IMG/VR virus record: IMGVR_UViG_3300033553_000338
Span: 93,881 to 157,880 of that record
From: a virus
DNA length: 64,000 bases
Reading direction: 5' to 3' (one strand)
This document shows positions 226 through 51,570 of this stretch, piece after piece (positions within the stretch are counted from its first letter, which is position 1; each line of letters opens with the position of its first letter). Under the pieces are notes generated by a model. That model saw only the letters and a list, made by a program, of their open reading frames with translations. It was not told the origin of the DNA and did not search any database. The position numbers and the translations under genes were made by a program.

Positions 226-314
226 GGAGAGTTGGGTAAGAGGCTTAAGCCACCGGTTTGCTAAACCGGCGTACAGATTAAACTGTACCGGGGGTTCGAA
301 TCCCTCACTCTCCG
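226..314 (+). tRNA. tRNA-Ser(GCT)
   Basis: Complete class II cloverleaf. The acceptor GGAGAGT pairs with ACTCTCC and is followed by discriminator G. The anticodon stem CCGGT/ACCGG encloses a loop with anticodon GCT, decoding AGC/AGU. A long variable arm (GTACAG.../CTGTAC) and a T arm with TTCGAAT are present. CCA is not encoded. It is the first member of a phage tRNA cluster. Confidence 0.93.
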
Positions 315-46132: not shown

Positions 46133-46504
46133 ATGCACAAATCAACTGAGTATACCTATCACGGGACTGGTAAAGGCCAGGCATTAAACATCCAACACGA
46201 TGGGTTTATGAAACCAAGTGAAACCGGAGAAAAGCAGCCATCAGTGAGCTTTACAAATGACCTTGATTATGCAAAATATTATGCCAGAGCAAAAGGTGGA
46301 TCGAGCAAAGAGTGTACCCTGAGGACAAAATTAACCAATGACTTCCAGCTGTCTCCACGAATAATGAACAATGCAGGTGATGAATATATCTCATTTAAGG
46401 ATGTATCATCATCTGTTTTAGAAGTGTTGGCCGGCAATGGTAGCTGGTATCCCTTGGATAGTTGGGATGTAATCTTTGATGAACCTTTAGAAACTTACCT
46501 GTAA
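46133..46504 (+). CDS. ADP-ribosyltransferase-fold (ART-like) small protein
   Basis: 123 residues. YTYHGTGKGQALNIQHDGFMKP followed by PSVSFTNDLDYAKYYARAKG reproduces the order of ART/RNA 2'-phosphotransferase-like folds: 'YHGT...A..I...G', then '[VS]..FT.....A..YA'. The motif 'YHGT' supplies the NAD-contacting His. A conserved C-terminal acidic residue is less clear (DVIFDE). It could ADP-ribosylate a host target or remove such a mark; activity is inferred from motif only. Confidence 0.5.
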   Translation: MHKSTEYTYHGTGKGQALNIQHDGFMKPSETGEKQPSVSFTNDLDYAKYYARAKGGSSKECTLRTKLTNDFQLSPRIMNNAGDEYISFKDVSSSVLEVLAGNGSWYPLDSWDVIFDEPLETYL

Positions 46505-46525: not shown

Positions 46526-46789
46526 ATGAAAATAGAATCAATCTATAACCCAAAAGTTTATCATGTTTACGAGTACTGCAAAAAATGCAATCATAGAAAT
46601 GATACCCACGATATGAATTGTCTCGAATGCTGCCCTGTTAAAAATGAAAACATTCGAGAGAGTGAGGAAGAATTTTGCACTTGCATAAATCCAAGCATAT
46701 ACTTAAGCATTTCAAGAATTACGATGTGTGCAAGTTGCGATAAGCCTTATTGTGCAAAATTCATCGGAGCGAACGTAATGCAGCCATAA
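46526..46789 (+). CDS. Cys-rich small protein, possibly first cassette gene
   Basis: 87 residues with ten cysteines: YCKKCNH, CLECC, CTCI and CASCDKPYC. Probably binds two zinc ions. The stop codon lies in CCATAACG, the same arrangement as the left R box in the following cassettes. It may therefore be the first cassette, although no site is visible upstream. Confidence 0.5.
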   Translation: MKIESIYNPKVYHVYEYCKKCNHRNDTHDMNCLECCPVKNENIRESEEEFCTCINPSIYLSISRITMCASCDKPYCAKFIGANVMQP

Positions 46790-46879
46790 CGATTTGGCTA
46801 TGTGCTGAACGTAGAGTAACGGAGTTTTGCATATAGGTAGTGCTATGTGCTTTTTATTAACAGATTAAATGAAATTAAG

Positions 46880-47068
46880 ATGAGATTTATAGCGACAATA
46901 AAATGGTTAGACAATGGAAATATACAAGATGATATTATTCTAAAAATTGGAGATATAGAAGAAGATGATGATGATATTTTCTTCTACTTAGATTCTGAAA
47001 GGGAAGTTGAAGAATTTAAAAAAGAAGGTGTTAATGATTGGGTTATTCTTGATGTAGTTAAAGAGTAA
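46880..47068 (+). CDS. Cassette gene: small acidic protein
   Basis: 62 residues from ATG 46880. Strongly acidic (GDIEEDDDDIFFYLDSEREVEEF). No family recognised. Isolated by about 90 bases upstream and 107 bases downstream of non-coding sequence, unlike phage genes here. Confidence 0.5.
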   Translation: MRFIATIKWLDNGNIQDDIILKIGDIEEDDDDIFFYLDSEREVEEFKKEGVNDWVILDVVKE

Positions 47069-47077
47069 TTGCATACG

Positions 47078-47157
47078 TTCGGCAATATGAAGCGGTTGCC
47101 AGCTAAGACGCTTCAATTTAGTAATAAGCCTATCGGCAACTGTTTTATATTGCTTGT
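47078..47157 (+). repeat. attC-like palindrome (weak)
   Basis: Nested inverted repeats: GCAATAT (47082-47088) pairs with ATATTGC (47147-47153), and GTTGCC (47095-47100) with GGCAAC (47135-47140). The R boxes are not canonical. Confidence 0.4.
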
Positions 47158-47175
47158 AGGCACAGTTAATTTCAT

Positions 47176-47451
47176 ATGATTAAAAAAGGAGATAGATTAC
47201 TCGTATGGTCTTTGCAATCTTTTTCGCACGGTGGGTTTTTAAAAGGAGAACCAGCATTTGCAAGACAAAGTTCAAATGGTGATAGTGTTATTCTTTGTGT
47301 CATTAGAAATTTCACTGGTGAATATAAGATAGACGAAAGCTATGAAGTTTATATAAAGCAAGTTGAAGGTGTAACAAAGAATAACTGGAATGCTAAGAAA
47401 AGATTGAAAAAATTTAGGAAACAGATAATGCTGAATGGTGCGATTTCTTAA
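47176..47451 (+). CDS. Cassette gene: hypothetical protein
   Basis: 91 residues, basic C-terminus (KKRLKKFRKQIML). N-terminal MIKKGDRLLVWSLQSFSHGGF has a beta-barrel-like look. No family. Flanked by palindromic sites on both sides. Confidence 0.5.
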   Translation: MIKKGDRLLVWSLQSFSHGGFLKGEPAFARQSSNGDSVILCVIRNFTGEYKIDESYEVYIKQVEGVTKNNWNAKKRLKKFRKQIMLNGAIS

Positions 47452-47455
47452 CTGT

Positions 47456-47607
47456 GCCTAACGGGTCAGGGCTATATGTCGTTTCAACCGGCATACCGAG
47501 GTCACGAATGGATGTTCAGGTTTAAATGACATATCAGCTAGTGTTGTGCTGCGTTCGATTCGTCATTCACATAATTATGGACAAAGCGTAGCCCTGGCCC
47601 GTTGGGT
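47456..47607 (+). repeat. attC-like recombination site (strong)
   Basis: Left box GCCTAAC (47456-47462), right box GTTGGGT (47601-47607), both matching the integron consensus. CCTAACGGGTCAGGGCTA (47457-47474) pairs with 47589-47606 at all 18 positions if two G.T pairs are allowed. An inner stem (47474-47480 with 47528-47534) continues the hairpin. Size and symmetry match long attC sites. Confidence 0.7.
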
Positions 47608-47654
47608 TTCATTCAAAAAAAAAACGAGAATTAAAATTTTTTAAACTTTAGTAT

Positions 47655-48047
47655 ATGGAAAAAGAATATCAAACAGCTAGCTTGAATGAACTTAGTTCCC
47701 AGTTAGCAGAATTTCAAGTAAGGATGGGATTCACAGATTCAAGCATAACGCAAAGACTTATGCTAGTTCATTCCGAGGTATCAGAAGCCTTTGAGGCGTT
47801 TAGAAGAGATCGTTACGCAAGGGTTAAAAACTATATTGAGGGATACGATCACCAAGATAATTTAGAACAGAAAAAAGCCGGATTTGAGCTGCACATTAAA
47901 GACTCGTTTGAAGATGAAATCGCTGATTCGATTATAAGGCTTCTGGCTCTTTGCGGTGAAAACAACATTGACATTGAGAAGCATATACAGTTAAAAATGC
48001 GTTACAATGAAATGCGAGGCTTCAAGTATGGAGGTAAAAAATTTTAA
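47655..48047 (+). CDS. Cassette gene: MazG-like nucleotide pyrophosphohydrolase
   Basis: 130 residues. HSEVSEAFEAFRRD corresponds to the metal-binding ExxE of MazG/dUTPase-like all-alpha NTP pyrophosphatases, and FEDEIADSIIRLLAL supplies the second ExxD helix; both are in the right order. It may hydrolyse (d)NTPs or an alarmone; MazG-like genes are frequent in both phages and integron cassettes. Confidence 0.75.
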   Translation: MEKEYQTASLNELSSQLAEFQVRMGFTDSSITQRLMLVHSEVSEAFEAFRRDRYARVKNYIEGYDHQDNLEQKKAGFELHIKDSFEDEIADSIIRLLALCGENNIDIEKHIQLKMRYNEMRGFKYGGKKF

Positions 48048-48060
48048 TGAAGTGATTTTG

Positions 48061-48113
48061 GCTTCGTGGCTCCTGCCAACGAAGCGTATGAAACCCAACG
48101 GTTTGGCTAAACG
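48061..48113 (+). repeat. attC-like palindrome with terminator-like hairpin
   Basis: GCTTCGTGGC / GCCAACGAAGC (48061-48085, one bulge) then ACCCAAC (48093-48099, a perfect left-box match) followed by GTTT-GGCT-AAAC. The complementary right half is not obvious, so the site may be rearranged. Confidence 0.4.
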
Positions 48114-48149
48114 CTGGCCGATCATAGACCCATCAAAAAAGAAAGAACG

Positions 48150-48506
48150 ATGAAAAATAAGACAGACATTTCCGAGAATAACGAACGGCTTGCGTTTGAG
48201 CCTGTGTTATATGACCGTTTGCTTTTGGAGGGGGAATCCTTCTGGCAACATCATAACAGGCTCACATTATTTGAAATCCAAGATGCTATTAATGTGATGA
48301 AGATTAGCGGGAGGCTGCCTGACTGTATGTGGGAGGACTTGCAACATATACACGCAACCAATTACGGCACTTTTTACAACCTGACAAAGAGAATGATTGA
48401 TGCCGATTACCCAGGCGTGTTTACGAAGATAAAACCGAATAGAGACTTTCTTCAGTGGATTTACGAAGGCGTTAAGGCAGCAGCAGGAAAAGCAAACGTC
48501 ATATAA
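48150..48506 (+). CDS. Cassette gene: hypothetical protein
   Basis: 118 residues, Trp/His-containing helices (LLLEGESFWQHHNRLTLFEIQDA). The stop lies in CATATAACG, a left-box-like sequence. No family recognised. Confidence 0.5.
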   Translation: MKNKTDISENNERLAFEPVLYDRLLLEGESFWQHHNRLTLFEIQDAINVMKISGRLPDCMWEDLQHIHATNYGTFYNLTKRMIDADYPGVFTKIKPNRDFLQWIYEGVKAAAGKANVI

Positions 48507-48632
48507 CGTTGGTGTATGCACCTGTTGGCTTTTAATTAGAATTACTAAACTTTAAATACCTAATAAGATGAACAAAGAAAACCAAACTACAAATAACAGC
48601 AAGCCAATGGCGTATGATACGTTGTTATATAC
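48500..48632 (+). repeat. attC-like half sites around a tiny reading frame
   Basis: TATAAC-GTTGGTGTATG (48502-48518) and CGTATGATACGTTGTTATA (48611-48629) are imperfect inverted repeats, with GTTGGC/GCCAA further inside. A 25-codon frame (MNKENQTTNN..., 48568-48645) sits mainly between them. Confidence 0.45.
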
Positions 48633-48666
48633 TGGCACGGATTAAGAACTAAAAACTTTAAAAAAA

Positions 48667-48999
48667 ATGGATTTAAGAATTGAAACAATATTTGCGGAAC
48701 AAATGAAAGGAGATACATCTTTTCAAGAAAAAGAAAGTGGTTTAAGCCTATTATTTGGTGGCACAAGTTACAATAAGCACGAAATGAGAGAAACTTGGGA
48801 TAATGGAATAAAGTACGGAATAGAAATAGGTTTAAATGTAGCAAGTTTAGAAGGGCAAAAAATTGAATTAAACCACAATACACCAGATGGAAAGAATAAA
48901 GAATTTCTTGAAAAGTTTTATAGACTTGCGGAAGAATATAAATGTGCAATACAGTATCATCCGCAAAAAGGAATGGTTGTATTAGACCGAGAATATTAG
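48667..48999 (+). CDS. Cassette gene: hypothetical protein
   Basis: 110 residues, AT-rich codons (AAA, GAA, ATA dominate), ATG after TTTAAAAAAA. Segment GLSLLFGGTSYNKHEMRETW is Gly-rich. No known family. The strongest composition contrast with phage genes is seen here. Confidence 0.5.
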   Translation: MDLRIETIFAEQMKGDTSFQEKESGLSLLFGGTSYNKHEMRETWDNGIKYGIEIGLNVASLEGQKIELNHNTPDGKNKEFLEKFYRLAEEYKCAIQYHPQKGMVVLDREY

Positions 49000-49006
49000 T
49001 GATTGT

Positions 49007-49059
49007 ATATAACGTTGAGTATAAACGGTCGTTTTAATGCCGTTTATACATTGTTGTGT
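49007..49059 (+). repeat. attC-like recombination site
   Basis: GTATAAACGG (49019-49028) pairs perfectly with CCGTTTATAC (49040-49049). Outside an unpaired spacer (GTTGA versus ATT), AAC (49011-49013) faces GTT (49053-49055), the R-box position. This is the classic small attC hairpin layout. Confidence 0.65.
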
Positions 49060-49168
49060 GTCTGTGGGCGGTGATTTAGCAGTAAACTTCTTTTGAAATA
49101 CAGAACCAAAAAAGAAAAAAGGGGAGGGGAAAACTTTATAGAGTACCTAATTTAATAAATATAATACA

Positions 49169-49477
49169 ATGAAAGTATTAACAGAAGGTCACAAGTACCA
49201 ATTGAGCGGATTTGAGAACGCTGAAAACACTCAAGAAATTCAATTCATTGAGAAAACGCCAATTGAAGGCACAAGTGAATTGAAAACGGTAAATGATGGA
49301 ACAACTAACGAGGAACTTCTTGAAGTCTTAATTGACCGAATGAATTACCTACAAGGAAAATTCCCTTGCCGTGAAAATGCTCTTGTAATTACCAAACTTC
49401 AAGAATCTTTGATGTGGTTAGAAAAACGAACTTCTGACCGTAAAAAGCGAAATGTAGAAGGTAAGCAACTGGCTTAA
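49169..49477 (+). CDS. Cassette gene: Acb2/Tad1-type cyclic-nucleotide sponge (anti-CBASS/anti-Thoeris)
   Basis: 102 residues. LIDRMNYLQGKFPCRENAL and ITKLQESLMWLEKRTSDRKK followed by VEG correspond to the helical hairpin of Acb2/Tad1 proteins, where the paired helices of a multimer bind cyclic di- and trinucleotides or gcADPR and so silence CBASS and Thoeris. The N-terminal ~45 residues form an extra beta-rich part (HKYQLSGFENAENTQEIQFIEK) seen in longer members. Located in a cassette, it could be spread independently of the phage. Confidence 0.72.
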   Translation: MKVLTEGHKYQLSGFENAENTQEIQFIEKTPIEGTSELKTVNDGTTNEELLEVLIDRMNYLQGKFPCRENALVITKLQESLMWLEKRTSDRKKRNVEGKQLA

Positions 49478-49543
49478 AGTTTTGTGAGCGTGGGCTTTTT
49501 CTTTTTCGATTATTAGCAGAAATGTTGATTTGAAAAACGGATT

Positions 49544-49605
49544 TAGCCCATTGCACACAACGGTCTGGCGGTTTGTTGTCGGTTGCCGTTACAATAAACG
49601 ACTAA
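49544..49605 (+). repeat. attC-like segment (degenerate)
   Basis: ACACAACGGTCTGGCGG (49555-49571) resembles a Bacteroidota attC left half, and GACTAAGTTGATGCG (49590-49604) has a GTT-containing right end, but the two do not pair well. Possibly a hybrid from recombination between two sites. Confidence 0.3.
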
Positions 49606-49641
49606 GTTGATGCGAATAAATAACTTAACAAATTACGCGCG

Positions 49642-50001
49642 ATGGATAGACCTACAAAAATTACAGTAATTGAAAAGAATGATGGTTATGAAATCATTTG
49701 CATGGATGAAATGTCTGGAAGTTCAATTGGAGTTGATTTGCCTGTTAATGGATATAAAGCATTAGCCGAACATTTTAAAACCGGTGCGATGGAAATTAGT
49801 TCAGACGAGCTGGGCAACTGCAATAAACCGCATGTTAGCCCATCGTTGATCCCAATTGACGAGACGTTTAACAATTGGAGATTTAATTATTCAGAATTTG
49901 GAGCAGTAGATAAAGGTGAAGATTTTAAGAAAGGATTACAAACAGGAACTTGGGCTGGTTATAATTACGCACGTGTAAGGATTAAAAACAATGAGGGCTA
50001 A
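49642..50001 (+). CDS. Cassette gene: hypothetical protein
   Basis: 119 residues from ATG 49642. N-terminal strand-turn-strand (KITVIEKNDGYEIICMDEMSG split by polar residues), a Gly/Lys-rich end (KKGLQTGTWAGYNYARVRI). The stop TAA is inside the left box GGCTAAC of the next site. Unknown function. Confidence 0.5.
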   Translation: MDRPTKITVIEKNDGYEIICMDEMSGSSIGVDLPVNGYKALAEHFKTGAMEISSDELGNCNKPHVSPSLIPIDETFNNWRFNYSEFGAVDKGEDFKKGLQTGTWAGYNYARVRIKNNEG

Positions 50002-50058
50002 CGCTGTGTGTATGGTGTCGGCTGACGATAGGAAGCTGCACTATACACGATGTTACCT
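49995..50058 (+). repeat. attC-like recombination site (strong)
   Basis: GGGCTAAC (49995-50002) faces GTTACC (50052-50057); after a spacer, GTGTATGGTG (50008-50017) pairs with CACTATACAC (50039-50048) with one G.T pair. About 60 bp long, the typical size of a short attC. Confidence 0.68.
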
Positions 50059-50084
50059 ACTGTACGGCTTATTAAAACGAAAAT

Positions 50085-50816
50085 ATGATTAGAAACACGA
50101 TACATAAAGGGGATTGCCTTGAATTGATGCCGAAACTTATTGAAGATAAAAGCATTGATATGATTTTTTGCGATTTACCATACGGAACTACAAAATGTAA
50201 ATGGGATAGTGTAATTGACTTACCTAAATTGTGGAGCGAATACGAGAGAGTAATTAAAGATAATGGCGTTATTCTATTATTTGCACAAAGCCCATTTGAT
50301 AAAGTACTTGGAGCGAGCAACCTAAATCTACTGAAGTATGAATGGATTTGGGAGAAAACTTCTGCCACAGGACATTTGAACGCTAAAAAGATGCCAATGA
50401 AAGCACACGAGAACTTGTTGGTTTTTTATAAGAACCCTCCAATTTATAACCCACAAAAAACAAGTGGGCACGAAAGAAAGGTTAGTAAAGCAGAACATAA
50501 AACCAACTGCAAGGAAAGTGAAGTGTATAATAAAGGGCAGAAGTTGACGACCTATGACAGCACCGAGAGATACCCAAGAAGCGTACAGGTTTTTGCGAGC
50601 GATAAACAGAAGGTAAAACTTCATAGCACACAAAAGCCATTATCTTTAATTGAGTATATGATAAAAACCTATACCAATGAAGGAGATTTGATACTTGACA
50701 ATGCTTGTGGAAGCGGAACTACTGGACTTGGAGCAAAAAATCTTAAACGAGATTATATAATGATGGAGCAAGACCCTGACATTTACGAAATTGCCTGTAA
50801 AAGAGTACTAACGTAG
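50085..50816 (+). CDS. Cassette gene: DNA N6-adenine/N4-cytosine methyltransferase
   Basis: 243 residues. Motif IV is DLPYGTTKCKWDSVIDL (DPPY variant, residues ~27-43), and motif I near the C-terminus is LDNACGSGTTGLGA; this IV-before-I order is the beta-class arrangement. EKTSATGHLNAKKMPMKAHENLLVFYK is the target-side region. It would methylate an adenine or N4-cytosine, giving restriction protection. No restriction enzyme lies beside it (orphan). It is one of two DNA methyltransferases in the window. Confidence 0.85.
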   Translation: MIRNTIHKGDCLELMPKLIEDKSIDMIFCDLPYGTTKCKWDSVIDLPKLWSEYERVIKDNGVILLFAQSPFDKVLGASNLNLLKYEWIWEKTSATGHLNAKKMPMKAHENLLVFYKNPPIYNPQKTSGHERKVSKAEHKTNCKESEVYNKGQKLTTYDSTERYPRSVQVFASDKQKVKLHSTQKPLSLIEYMIKTYTNEGDLILDNACGSGTTGLGAKNLKRDYIMMEQDPDIYEIACKRVLT

Positions 50817-50822
50817 TATTGC

Positions 50823-51037
50823 AGGTAACGCTAAGTATAACAAACGAAAAATTTACGACTTATGAAAACGCATTTAATTAAAGAAGAGTACAATACAGGT
50901 GAAAGAATTACGCATTTTAAGACAAGATGTGGTAAGATTAGGCACGTAATAACGAACCTACCGAACACCAAAGACAAGGATAAGGTTACTTGCAAGATAT
51001 GTAAGTAAATTTTATGTTTTGTTATACAATGTTGGGT
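50823..51037 (+). repeat. attC-like site split by a small gene
   Basis: Left half GGTAAC plus GTATAACAAA (50824-50844); right half TTTGTTATAC plus GTTGGGT (51018-51037). The 10-bp inner arms pair perfectly and the right box is a perfect GTTRRRY match. The 48-codon gene at 50862-51008 lies inside the loop. Confidence 0.6.
50862..51008 (+). CDS. Very small protein within an attC-like loop
   Basis: 48 residues beginning MKTHLIKEEYNTGERITHFK and ending TCKICK; basic, with three Cys including CKIC and one at TRC, possibly one metal site. It lies between the two arms of the palindrome at 50823-51037, so would be carried in a single-stranded attC loop. Confidence 0.45.
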   Translation: MKTHLIKEEYNTGERITHFKTRCGKIRHVITNLPNTKDKDKVTCKICK

Positions 51038-51171
51038 GCTTTTTTAATTGCATCCCAACTGTTATATGTAACAACCCTTTCTAATTCATTAGCTGATAAC
51101 AGCTTACCCACACCCGTTCGGAAAACCCATCAGGATACATTCCGATAATTTTAAACTTAACACTTAAGAAA

Positions 51172-51570
51172 ATGATTTTTGCAAAAACAGTAAGCTGCTG
51201 TGCAAAATGTAACAGCGAAGATATTGAAGTAAGAGGATGGATTACTATCAATACAAACAAGCCAGCTCCAGGTAGTGAGTTCCAGGACATTGAGGATCAA
51301 GAAACCTGGTGCCCTCATTGTGAGGATCATACCGGTCTGGAGAAACTTAATATTTATACCCATGATGGGGAGATAGGAATTATTGATCTTGACAATGGTC
51401 CCATCTTATTTTCCAGCGGGAAAGAATTTGTTAGGTGGGCTCGTCAGATCTTCAAAGAGAATGAGGAGGATGATACTACTTTACTACCAATCACAACCTT
51501 CCAGGAAGCTTGTGTGTACATCCAGGAGTATTGTTCCAATCTGTCTCTTCAGTCAAAGGAATTACTATAG
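51172..51570 (+). CDS. Zinc-ribbon protein
   Basis: 132 residues. SCCAKCNSEDIEVRG (residues ~8-22) and ETWCPHCEDHTGL (~44-56) form two CxxC knuckles of a zinc ribbon. Acidic C-terminus. First gene after the cassette array; codon use returns to the phage pattern, so the array probably ends near 51060. Confidence 0.6.
   Translation: MIFAKTVSCCAKCNSEDIEVRGWITINTNKPAPGSEFQDIEDQETWCPHCEDHTGLEKLNIYTHDGEIGIIDLDNGPILFSSGKEFVRWARQIFKENEEDDTTLLPITTFQEACVYIQEYCSNLSLQSKELL

What the first reader, a model, noticed from the sequence alone, without database searches (positions are those of the whole stretch)
46526..51060. Integron-like (attC-type) gene cassette array inside a phage-type genome
Between phage-like genes lies a 4.5-kb AT-rich stretch of about ten single-gene units, all on the + strand, each followed by a long imperfect palindrome with integron-like ends. 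The sites at 47456-47607 (GCCTAAC...GTTGGGT), 49007-49059, 49995-50058 and 50823-51037 have the R-box, unpaired spacer and inner arm layout of attC. Established knowledge: attC sites are recombined by IntI as folded single strands, and clusters without integrase (CALINs) occur in Bacteroidota. A phage or phage-plasmid carrying such an array could pick up and spread cassettes, including anti-defence genes, using host integrases.
Basis: partly seen in the sequence, partly recalled or inferred. Interest (0 to 1): 0.9.

Follow-up and report, generated by a model that had tools for sequence, protein, structure and literature searches.

The report
Inverted integron-cassette array in a phage
A large virus of bacteria carries a row of swappable genes, including one that probably disarms bacterial immunity, joined at integron-type DNA hairpins; unlike in known bacterial integrons, each gene travels with the hairpin in front of it, so these viruses seem to share their own pool of swappable genes.

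Summary
The finding is real. Window 46.5-51.06 kb holds a cassette array of 8-10 units with six clear attC-type hairpins. Each R' box (GTTRRRY) pairs perfectly with the R'' box (RYYYAAC) at the far end of the same unit (12, 10, 9, 8, 7 nt), not with the R'' of its own hairpin. This is the signature of hybrid attC sites left by cassette recombination; the array scores 93.9, against 45.7 at most elsewhere in the 157.9-kb record and 47.7 at most in 100 shuffles. The carrier is a large phage with a crAss-like terminase; no tyrosine recombinase was found in the record. Two cassettes (a Tad1 anti-Thoeris homologue and a DNA methyltransferase) recur in unrelated phages at 91-92% DNA identity, homology stopping at the boxes. 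The same organisation occurs in dozens of viral contigs, cultured Cellulophaga phage phi13:2 and a 635-kb phage. CALINs in phages were known (Qi 2023, PMC9892861); the inverted polarity I did not find described. Recombination was not tested.

The parts
46526..46789 (+). unit 1 gene: 87-aa Cys-rich protein, no family
46783..46853 (-). probable degenerate attC (GCCATAAC ... GCATATAG-GTAGTGCTATG)
   Evidence: sequence; R' box not to consensus
46880..47068 (+). unit 2 gene: 62-aa protein, no family
47071..47166 (-). probable degenerate attC, arms 47082-47100/47135-47153; its right end TGTAGGCACAGTTAA is complementary to TTAACTGTGCCTA at the end of unit 3
   Evidence: I6, I14
47176..47451 (+). unit 3 gene: 91-aa protein, no family
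47456..47607 (-). attC site (GCCTAAC ... GTTGGGT), 152 nt
   Evidence: closure 12 nt with 48099
47655..48047 (+). unit 4 gene: MazG-like pyrophosphatase
   Evidence: PHROG 3301, E 1.5e-23
48093..48212 (-). attC site (ACCCAAC ... GTTATAT), spacers 5/3 nt; the ATG of the unit 5 ORF lies inside its loop
   Evidence: closure 10 nt with 48507
48150..48506 (+). unit 5 gene: 118-aa protein, no family
48501..48630 (-). attC site (ATATAAC ... GTTATAT), 130 nt
   Evidence: closure 9 nt with 49013; folds no better than shuffles
48667..48999 (+). unit 6 gene: 110-aa protein, no family
49007..49059 (-). attC site of the widespread hairpin family with loop TCGTTTTAATG
   Evidence: closure 8 nt with 49561
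49169..49477 (+). unit 7 gene: Tad1 (Thoeris anti-defence 1) homologue
   Evidence: PDB 8kbb, E 6.4e-13, residues 41-99; PF24729 8e-6; recurs at 92% DNA identity in L037/L038
49555..49612 (-). degenerate attC (ACACAAC ... GTTGATG)
49642..50001 (+). unit 8 gene: 119-aa protein, no family
49996..50058 (-). attC site (GGCTAAC ... GTTACCT); stem covaries with its homologue in L194
   Evidence: closure 7 nt with 50829
50085..50816 (+). unit 9 gene: DNA methyltransferase (N6_N4_Mtase)
   Evidence: PF01555 1.7e-29; the whole unit 50000-50829 recurs in L194 at 91% DNA identity
50823..51037 (-). attC site (AGGTAAC ... GTTGGGT), 215 nt, with a 48-aa ORF (50862-51008) inside its loop
51031..51059 (.). 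terminal gene-less remnant GTTGGGTGC...GCATCCCAAC; end of the array
   Evidence: sequence
50002..50828 (+). example of the mobile unit as inferred: C-hairpin-GTTACCT-methyltransferase-AGGTAA
   Evidence: homology edges with L194

Best explanation
The region is a cluster of integron gene cassettes without an integrase (a CALIN) in a large phage, probably of a Bacteroidota host, with attC sites inverted relative to the genes. Inferred mechanism: the attC hairpin folds on the gene-sense strand (the 'bottom' strand in the usual convention) when that strand is single-stranded. A host-supplied integron-type tyrosine recombinase cuts in the R box (AA|C on the + strand) of two sites, and the unit C-hairpin-GTTRRRY-gene-RYYYAA leaves as a circle whose R'' and R' boxes pair perfectly. 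It is re-inserted at another attC, in the same or another phage. The genes all read with phage transcription, so each captured unit can be expressed at once. The cargo is accessory and partly counter-defence (Tad1 sponge, DNA methyltransferase). Shown here by sequence: hybrid attC sites, unit-precise exchange between unrelated phages, stem covariation, inverted polarity, no recombinase found in the record. Inferred: the recombinase is supplied by the host, the strand used, expression, and the benefit to the phage.
For: Hybrid-site signature and statistics. Closure test on viral hairpins chosen only by hairpin sequence: R' to downstream R'' of at least 9 nt in 52% versus 4.6% permuted; same-site R''/R' of at least 9 nt in 2.6%. 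Unit-precise sharing. Hairpin travels with the downstream gene: L037/L038, L093/L150, L146/L158, L091/L156, L112/L147 and window/L194. Polarity: flanking ORFs co-oriented 136 versus 3; spacer asymmetry 99/121 in phages versus 22/23 the opposite way in bacteria; box-flanking bases. Stem covariation: 98.9% of cells paired, 39 double changes versus 10 shuffled. No PF00589 match in the record or in 27 of 30 array-phage records. Phage identity: RIIA/RIIB, DNA polymerase, portal, terminase, major head protein. Related hairpins lie in P12002L, one of whose attC sites was recombined by IntI1 in E. coli (PMC9892861).
Against: No recombination was observed, and the IntegronFinder/HattCI model could not be run. 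The recombinase is unidentified, and most viral records are fragments. In some cassette pairs (window/L038, window/phi13:2, L108/L135, L114/L161) homology starts at GTT and the upstream hairpin has been replaced, which single-site recombination at AA|C does not explain. Site 47456-47607 and the three degenerate sites do not show clear polarity. I do not know which P12002L site was the one tested with IntI1.
Confidence: 0.8

Rival explanations
1. The same cassette logic, but moved by another tyrosine recombinase (Xer-like, or the XerA/IntI-like Bacteroidota enzymes that lack the integron-specific domain) rather than by a true IntI.
For: The one bacterial genome found with the same hairpin family (G122) has an array site and cassettes beside a 367-aa recombinase that matches XerA and integron-integrase models but skips profile positions 175-231 of TIGR02249, 227.6 bits against a cut-off of 265.
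Against: IntI1 recombined an attC from P12002L, a phage that carries this hairpin family (PMC9892861). The sites keep the attC layout.
Confidence: 0.15
2. The palindromes are transcription terminators or RNA-processing hairpins between ordinary phage genes.
For: They lie between co-oriented genes and several form stable hairpins.
Against: The two boxes of one hairpin mostly do not match each other but match the far end of the neighbouring gene unit. Homology between phages stops at the boxes. A terminator predicts the opposite.
Confidence: 0.03
3. Phage mosaicism by homologous recombination, using the conserved hairpins as short linkers, without a site-specific recombinase.
For: The loop TCGTTTTAATG and spacers are conserved across units, hairpins are sometimes swapped at GTT, and no integrase was found in most records.
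Against: It does not explain the matched R' and R'' boxes 300-800 bp apart that change together between homologues (GTTACCT/AGGTAAC versus GTTAGCT/AGCTAAC), or edges at the base of the box rather than inside the conserved hairpin.
Confidence: 0.08

Closest known systems
CALINs in phage genomes (Qi et al. 2023, PMC9892861; Tetrasphaera TJE1, Polaribacter P12002L, Pseudoalteromonas H101)
   Same: Clusters of attC without an integrase in lytic phages, methyltransferase cassettes, some sites recombined by IntI1.
   Different: Longer array, Tad1 cargo, unit-precise sharing among unrelated phages. Polarity inverted relative to genes here and in P12002L; TJE1 is canonical. The paper notes 'divergent directions' in P12002L but its main text does not describe an inverted pool.
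Bacterial (sedentary or class 1) integron cassette arrays
   Same: R boxes, unequal spacers, arms, hybrid attC sites, closure signature.
   Different: There the gene precedes its own attC and is read from Pc; here it follows its own attC. No intI found in the record; no attI was sought.
Tad1 (Thoeris anti-defence 1; PDB 8kbb, 7uav)
   Same: C-terminal hairpin domain conserved, E 6.4e-13.
   Different: The N-terminal part does not align by sequence; here it is cargo of an attC cassette.
pdif (Xer) modules of Acinetobacter plasmids
   Same: Single genes between recombination sites, recombinase supplied by the host.
   Different: pdif sites are about 28-bp double-stranded sites (own knowledge); here 50-215-nt hairpins with attC boxes.

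Membership tests
CALIN (cluster of attC sites lacking an integrase) | At least two attC sites close together with R'' RYYYAAC and R' GTTRRRY boxes and pairing arms | tested here: met
   six sites in 3.6 kb, most boxes at or near consensus, chain score far above null
CALIN (cluster of attC sites lacking an integrase) | No integron integrase gene nearby | tested here: met
   no PF00589 match in the whole 157,880-bp record; the record may be incomplete
CALIN (cluster of attC sites lacking an integrase) | Score above threshold with the attC covariance model of IntegronFinder or HattCI | not testable with these tools
   models not in Rfam or on the machine; own chain detector used instead, which also finds class 1, G122 and TJE1 arrays
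Integron cassette | Cassette closes into a circle whose attC has matching R'' and R' (hybrid sites when integrated) | tested here: met
   closures 12, 10, 9, 8, 7 nt; 52% versus 4.6% permuted in viral hairpins
Integron cassette | Gene lies 5' of its own attC (classical polarity) | tested here: not met
   hairpin moves with the downstream gene; motif and spacer polarity inverted
Integron cassette | Recombination by an IntI on the folded bottom strand | not testable with these tools
   only indirect: an IntI1-active attC reported in P12002L (PMC9892861), a phage with this hairpin family
Complete integron | intI gene in cis | tested here: not met
   no tyrosine recombinase in the record
Complete integron | attI site in cis | not tested
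   no model or sequence to search with
Tad1 | Homology to Tad1 of known structure | tested here: met
   E 6.4e-13 over residues 41-99; just below the Pfam cut-off for PF24729
Tad1 | Binds the Thoeris signal molecule | not testable with these tools
   needs an assay

The most novel reading that the evidence does not exclude
Phages of Bacteroidota, including very large ones, share a cassette pool of their own, separate from bacterial integrons, in which every gene is inverted relative to its attC. The inversion puts the recombinogenic attC strand on the gene-sense strand, which transcription (and lagging-strand synthesis, if the fork moves with the genes) exposes as single strand. The array is thus in the highly recombining orientation that chromosomal integrons avoid (PMC11023631). 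It works as an exchange system for counter-defence genes, driven by host recombinases.
Probability: 0.5. Interest if true: 0.87.

Novelty: new variant of a known kind. Interest (0 to 1): 0.77.

Why it matters
Integrons are known as devices by which bacteria shuffle genes, including resistance genes. Here phages appear to run the same chemistry with the polarity turned round, trading anti-immunity genes as exact units among unrelated phages. That would explain how counter-defence genes jump between phages without shared flanks. It gives a simple criterion (hairpin in front of its gene, AACG...TGTT in gene orientation) to find such arrays, and makes it testable why cassette genes point one way in bacteria and the other way in phages, and how cassettes arise.

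Tried and rejected
Rfam scan: only two tRNAs, no attC family. Looking for close relatives of the phage through genes flanking the array found none in IMG/VR, so the same locus could not be compared in sister phages. The idea that phi13:2's tyrosine recombinase next to its array is an IntI was dropped: no NCBIfam match. TIGR02249 hits in G031/G032 have no arrays beside them in the regions read. A terminator reading was rejected by the closure test. The classical unit (gene plus 3' attC) was my first model and was rejected when homology repeatedly ended at R'' and included the upstream hairpin. H101 showed one chain above the shuffle maximum of 47.7 but with AT-rich, non-consensus boxes, so the published H101 sites could not be identified or used as a polarity control. 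A first count of stem pairs in a script used a register one base off and was replaced. Estimating how much commoner the hairpin is in viruses than in bacteria was dropped: collection sizes are not comparable (1 of about 540 Bacteroidota genomes, versus 79 viral loci).
Full report
What was checked. The window is the last 64 kb of a 157,880-bp virus record. The record encodes RIIA, RIIB, a Dda-like helicase, DNA polymerase, ribonucleotide reductase, portal, terminase, major head protein, GroEL and thymidylate synthase. Its terminase is distantly related (about 30-34%) to phages from faecal samples, among them crAss-like ones, and records with a match include Bacteroides and Flavobacterium phages. 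It is therefore a large phage, probably of a Bacteroidota host. No tyrosine recombinase was found in the record.

The array. Between phage genes ending at 46504 and starting at 51172 lie nine + strand ORFs plus a 48-aa ORF. A detector that asks for a hairpin bounded by AAC and GTT boxes, and then for complementarity between the GTT box of one hairpin and the AAC box of the next, chains five sites from 47456 to 49612 (score 93.9; closures 12, 10, 9, 8 nt) and two from 49996 to 51037 (closure 7 nt). The best chain elsewhere in the record scores 45.7 and the best of 100 shuffles 47.7. The two boxes of one hairpin match each other poorly (GCCTAAC/GTTGGGT, ACCCAAC/GTTATAT, ATATAAC/GTTGTGT, GGCTAAC/GTTACCT, AGGTAAC/GTTGGGT; the exception is ATATAAC/GTTATAT). 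This is what integrated integron cassettes look like: each attC is a hybrid of two cassettes, and only the excised circle has matching boxes.

Other phages. Scanning IMG/VR with a hairpin pattern taken from three hairpins of the window and one of phi13:2 gave 79 loci; 28 have chains above the null maximum, up to 8 sites. More arrays came from Tad1, methyltransferase and MazG queries. Cultured Cellulophaga phage phi13:2 has one, Polaribacter P12002L has related hairpins, and so does a 634,780-bp phage genome. A terminase was confirmed in four of 16 array records with one model; others may be fragments. In hairpins chosen without regard to closure, 52% close with a downstream R'' by at least 9 nt against 4.6% after permutation, while only 2.6% do so within one site. 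Eighteen distinct 46-nt hairpins share the loop TCGTTTTAATG but have covarying stems: 98.9% paired cells, 39 cells changed on both sides against 10 in shuffles; the outer part of the stem was fixed by the search pattern, the inner part was not.

Exchange of units. The Tad1 unit is 92% identical at DNA level in L037/L038 and the methyltransferase unit 91% in L194, with unrelated DNA outside. In the cassette pairs read by eye the 3' edge of homology lies at, or a few bases past, the R'' AAC (two looser, L037/L038 and L130/L153). In the automatic list of 65 pairs many, but not all, end at AAC (that list also holds pairs that are not cassettes and repeats of one phage). The 5' edge lies at the AAC in front of the upstream hairpin in L037/L038, L093/L150, L146/L158, L091/L156, L112/L147 and window/L194, and at GTT in four pairs where the hairpin was replaced. 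In window/L194 the shared hairpin has a compensatory stem change; in L203 the R'/R'' pair of the methyltransferase unit has changed together, 770 bp apart.

Polarity. Class 1 integron sites and the bacterial arrays of genome G122, read in gene direction, have AACA...CGTT; the phage sites have AACG...TGTT. Spacer asymmetry agrees: 5' longer than 3' in 99 of 121 phage sites, 3' longer in 22 of 23 bacterial sites. For the 80 viral hits of the pattern, which was sought on both strands, flanking ORFs point with the pattern 136 times and against it 3 times; in G122 they point against it, as they appear to next to the Persicobacter plasmid hit. In G122 the four identical hairpins share the sequence upstream in gene direction and diverge downstream, as classical cassettes should. 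So the attC sites in these phages are inverted relative to the genes, by three lines (breakpoints, box-flanking bases, spacers). The bacterial yardstick is small: one class 1 array, one genome and one plasmid. Tetrasphaera phage TJE1 has canonical polarity, so this is not a rule for all phages.

Cargo. Unit 7 is a Tad1 homologue (PDB 8kbb, E 6.4e-13), unit 9 a DNA methyltransferase and unit 4 a MazG-like pyrophosphatase. The other units have no family.

Mechanism and limits. That the units move by integron-type recombination is inferred from sequence. Qi et al. showed IntI1 recombination for attC sites of P12002L and TJE1, but which P12002L site was active could not be matched here. Only 3 of 30 array-phage records had a tyrosine recombinase, so a host enzyme in trans is likely. 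A candidate type is the XerA/IntI-like enzyme in G122, which lacks the integron-specific segment. Chromosomal integrons keep the active attC strand on the leading-strand template, and inverting one raises excision (PMC11023631); the inverted phage arrangement would put the active strand on the gene-sense strand. Whether this is why the polarity is inverted is speculation. Hairpin replacement at GTT is unexplained.

Novelty. CALINs in phages, with methyltransferase cassettes, are known (PMC9892861). I class it as a new variant of a known kind.

Noticed in passing
window 226-314 and 845-916: Two tRNA genes near the start of the window.
   Followed up: no
window 48150-48212, 48569-48645 and 50862-51008: Start codons or whole short ORFs lie inside the attC loops, e.g. 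the peptide MNKENQTTNNSKPMAYDTLLYTGTD and a 48-aa ORF; in unit 5 the gene seems to start inside its own upstream attC.
   Followed up: partly
L181 1575-2678 (genome G122): A Bacteroidota genome with canonical-polarity arrays has, beside one attC-like site, a 367-aa XerA/IntI-like recombinase that skips the part of the integron-integrase profile where the integron-specific domain lies.
   Followed up: partly
L291 5509-8292 (LR745206, 634,780-bp phage): A very large phage genome carries a short inverted-polarity attC array.
   Followed up: partly
L083 4075-5361 (Cellulophaga phage phi13:2): A tyrosine recombinase gene lies just after the cassette array; it does not match integron integrase models.
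   Followed up: partly
window 49013-49055 versus L038 and L100: The hairpin in front of the Tad1 gene differs from that in L037/L038 but is identical to one in L100, with the break near GTT: hairpins are sometimes swapped independently of the gene.
   Followed up: partly
L011 (Chitinophagales MAG contig): Two or more related methyltransferase segments with attC-like hairpins of inverted polarity in a contig binned as bacterial; possibly a phage contig.
   Followed up: no
L004 and L005 (same record as the window): The phage encodes a GroEL chaperonin, and its terminase is at most about 34% identical to phages in the collection, so it may be a new lineage.
   Followed up: no
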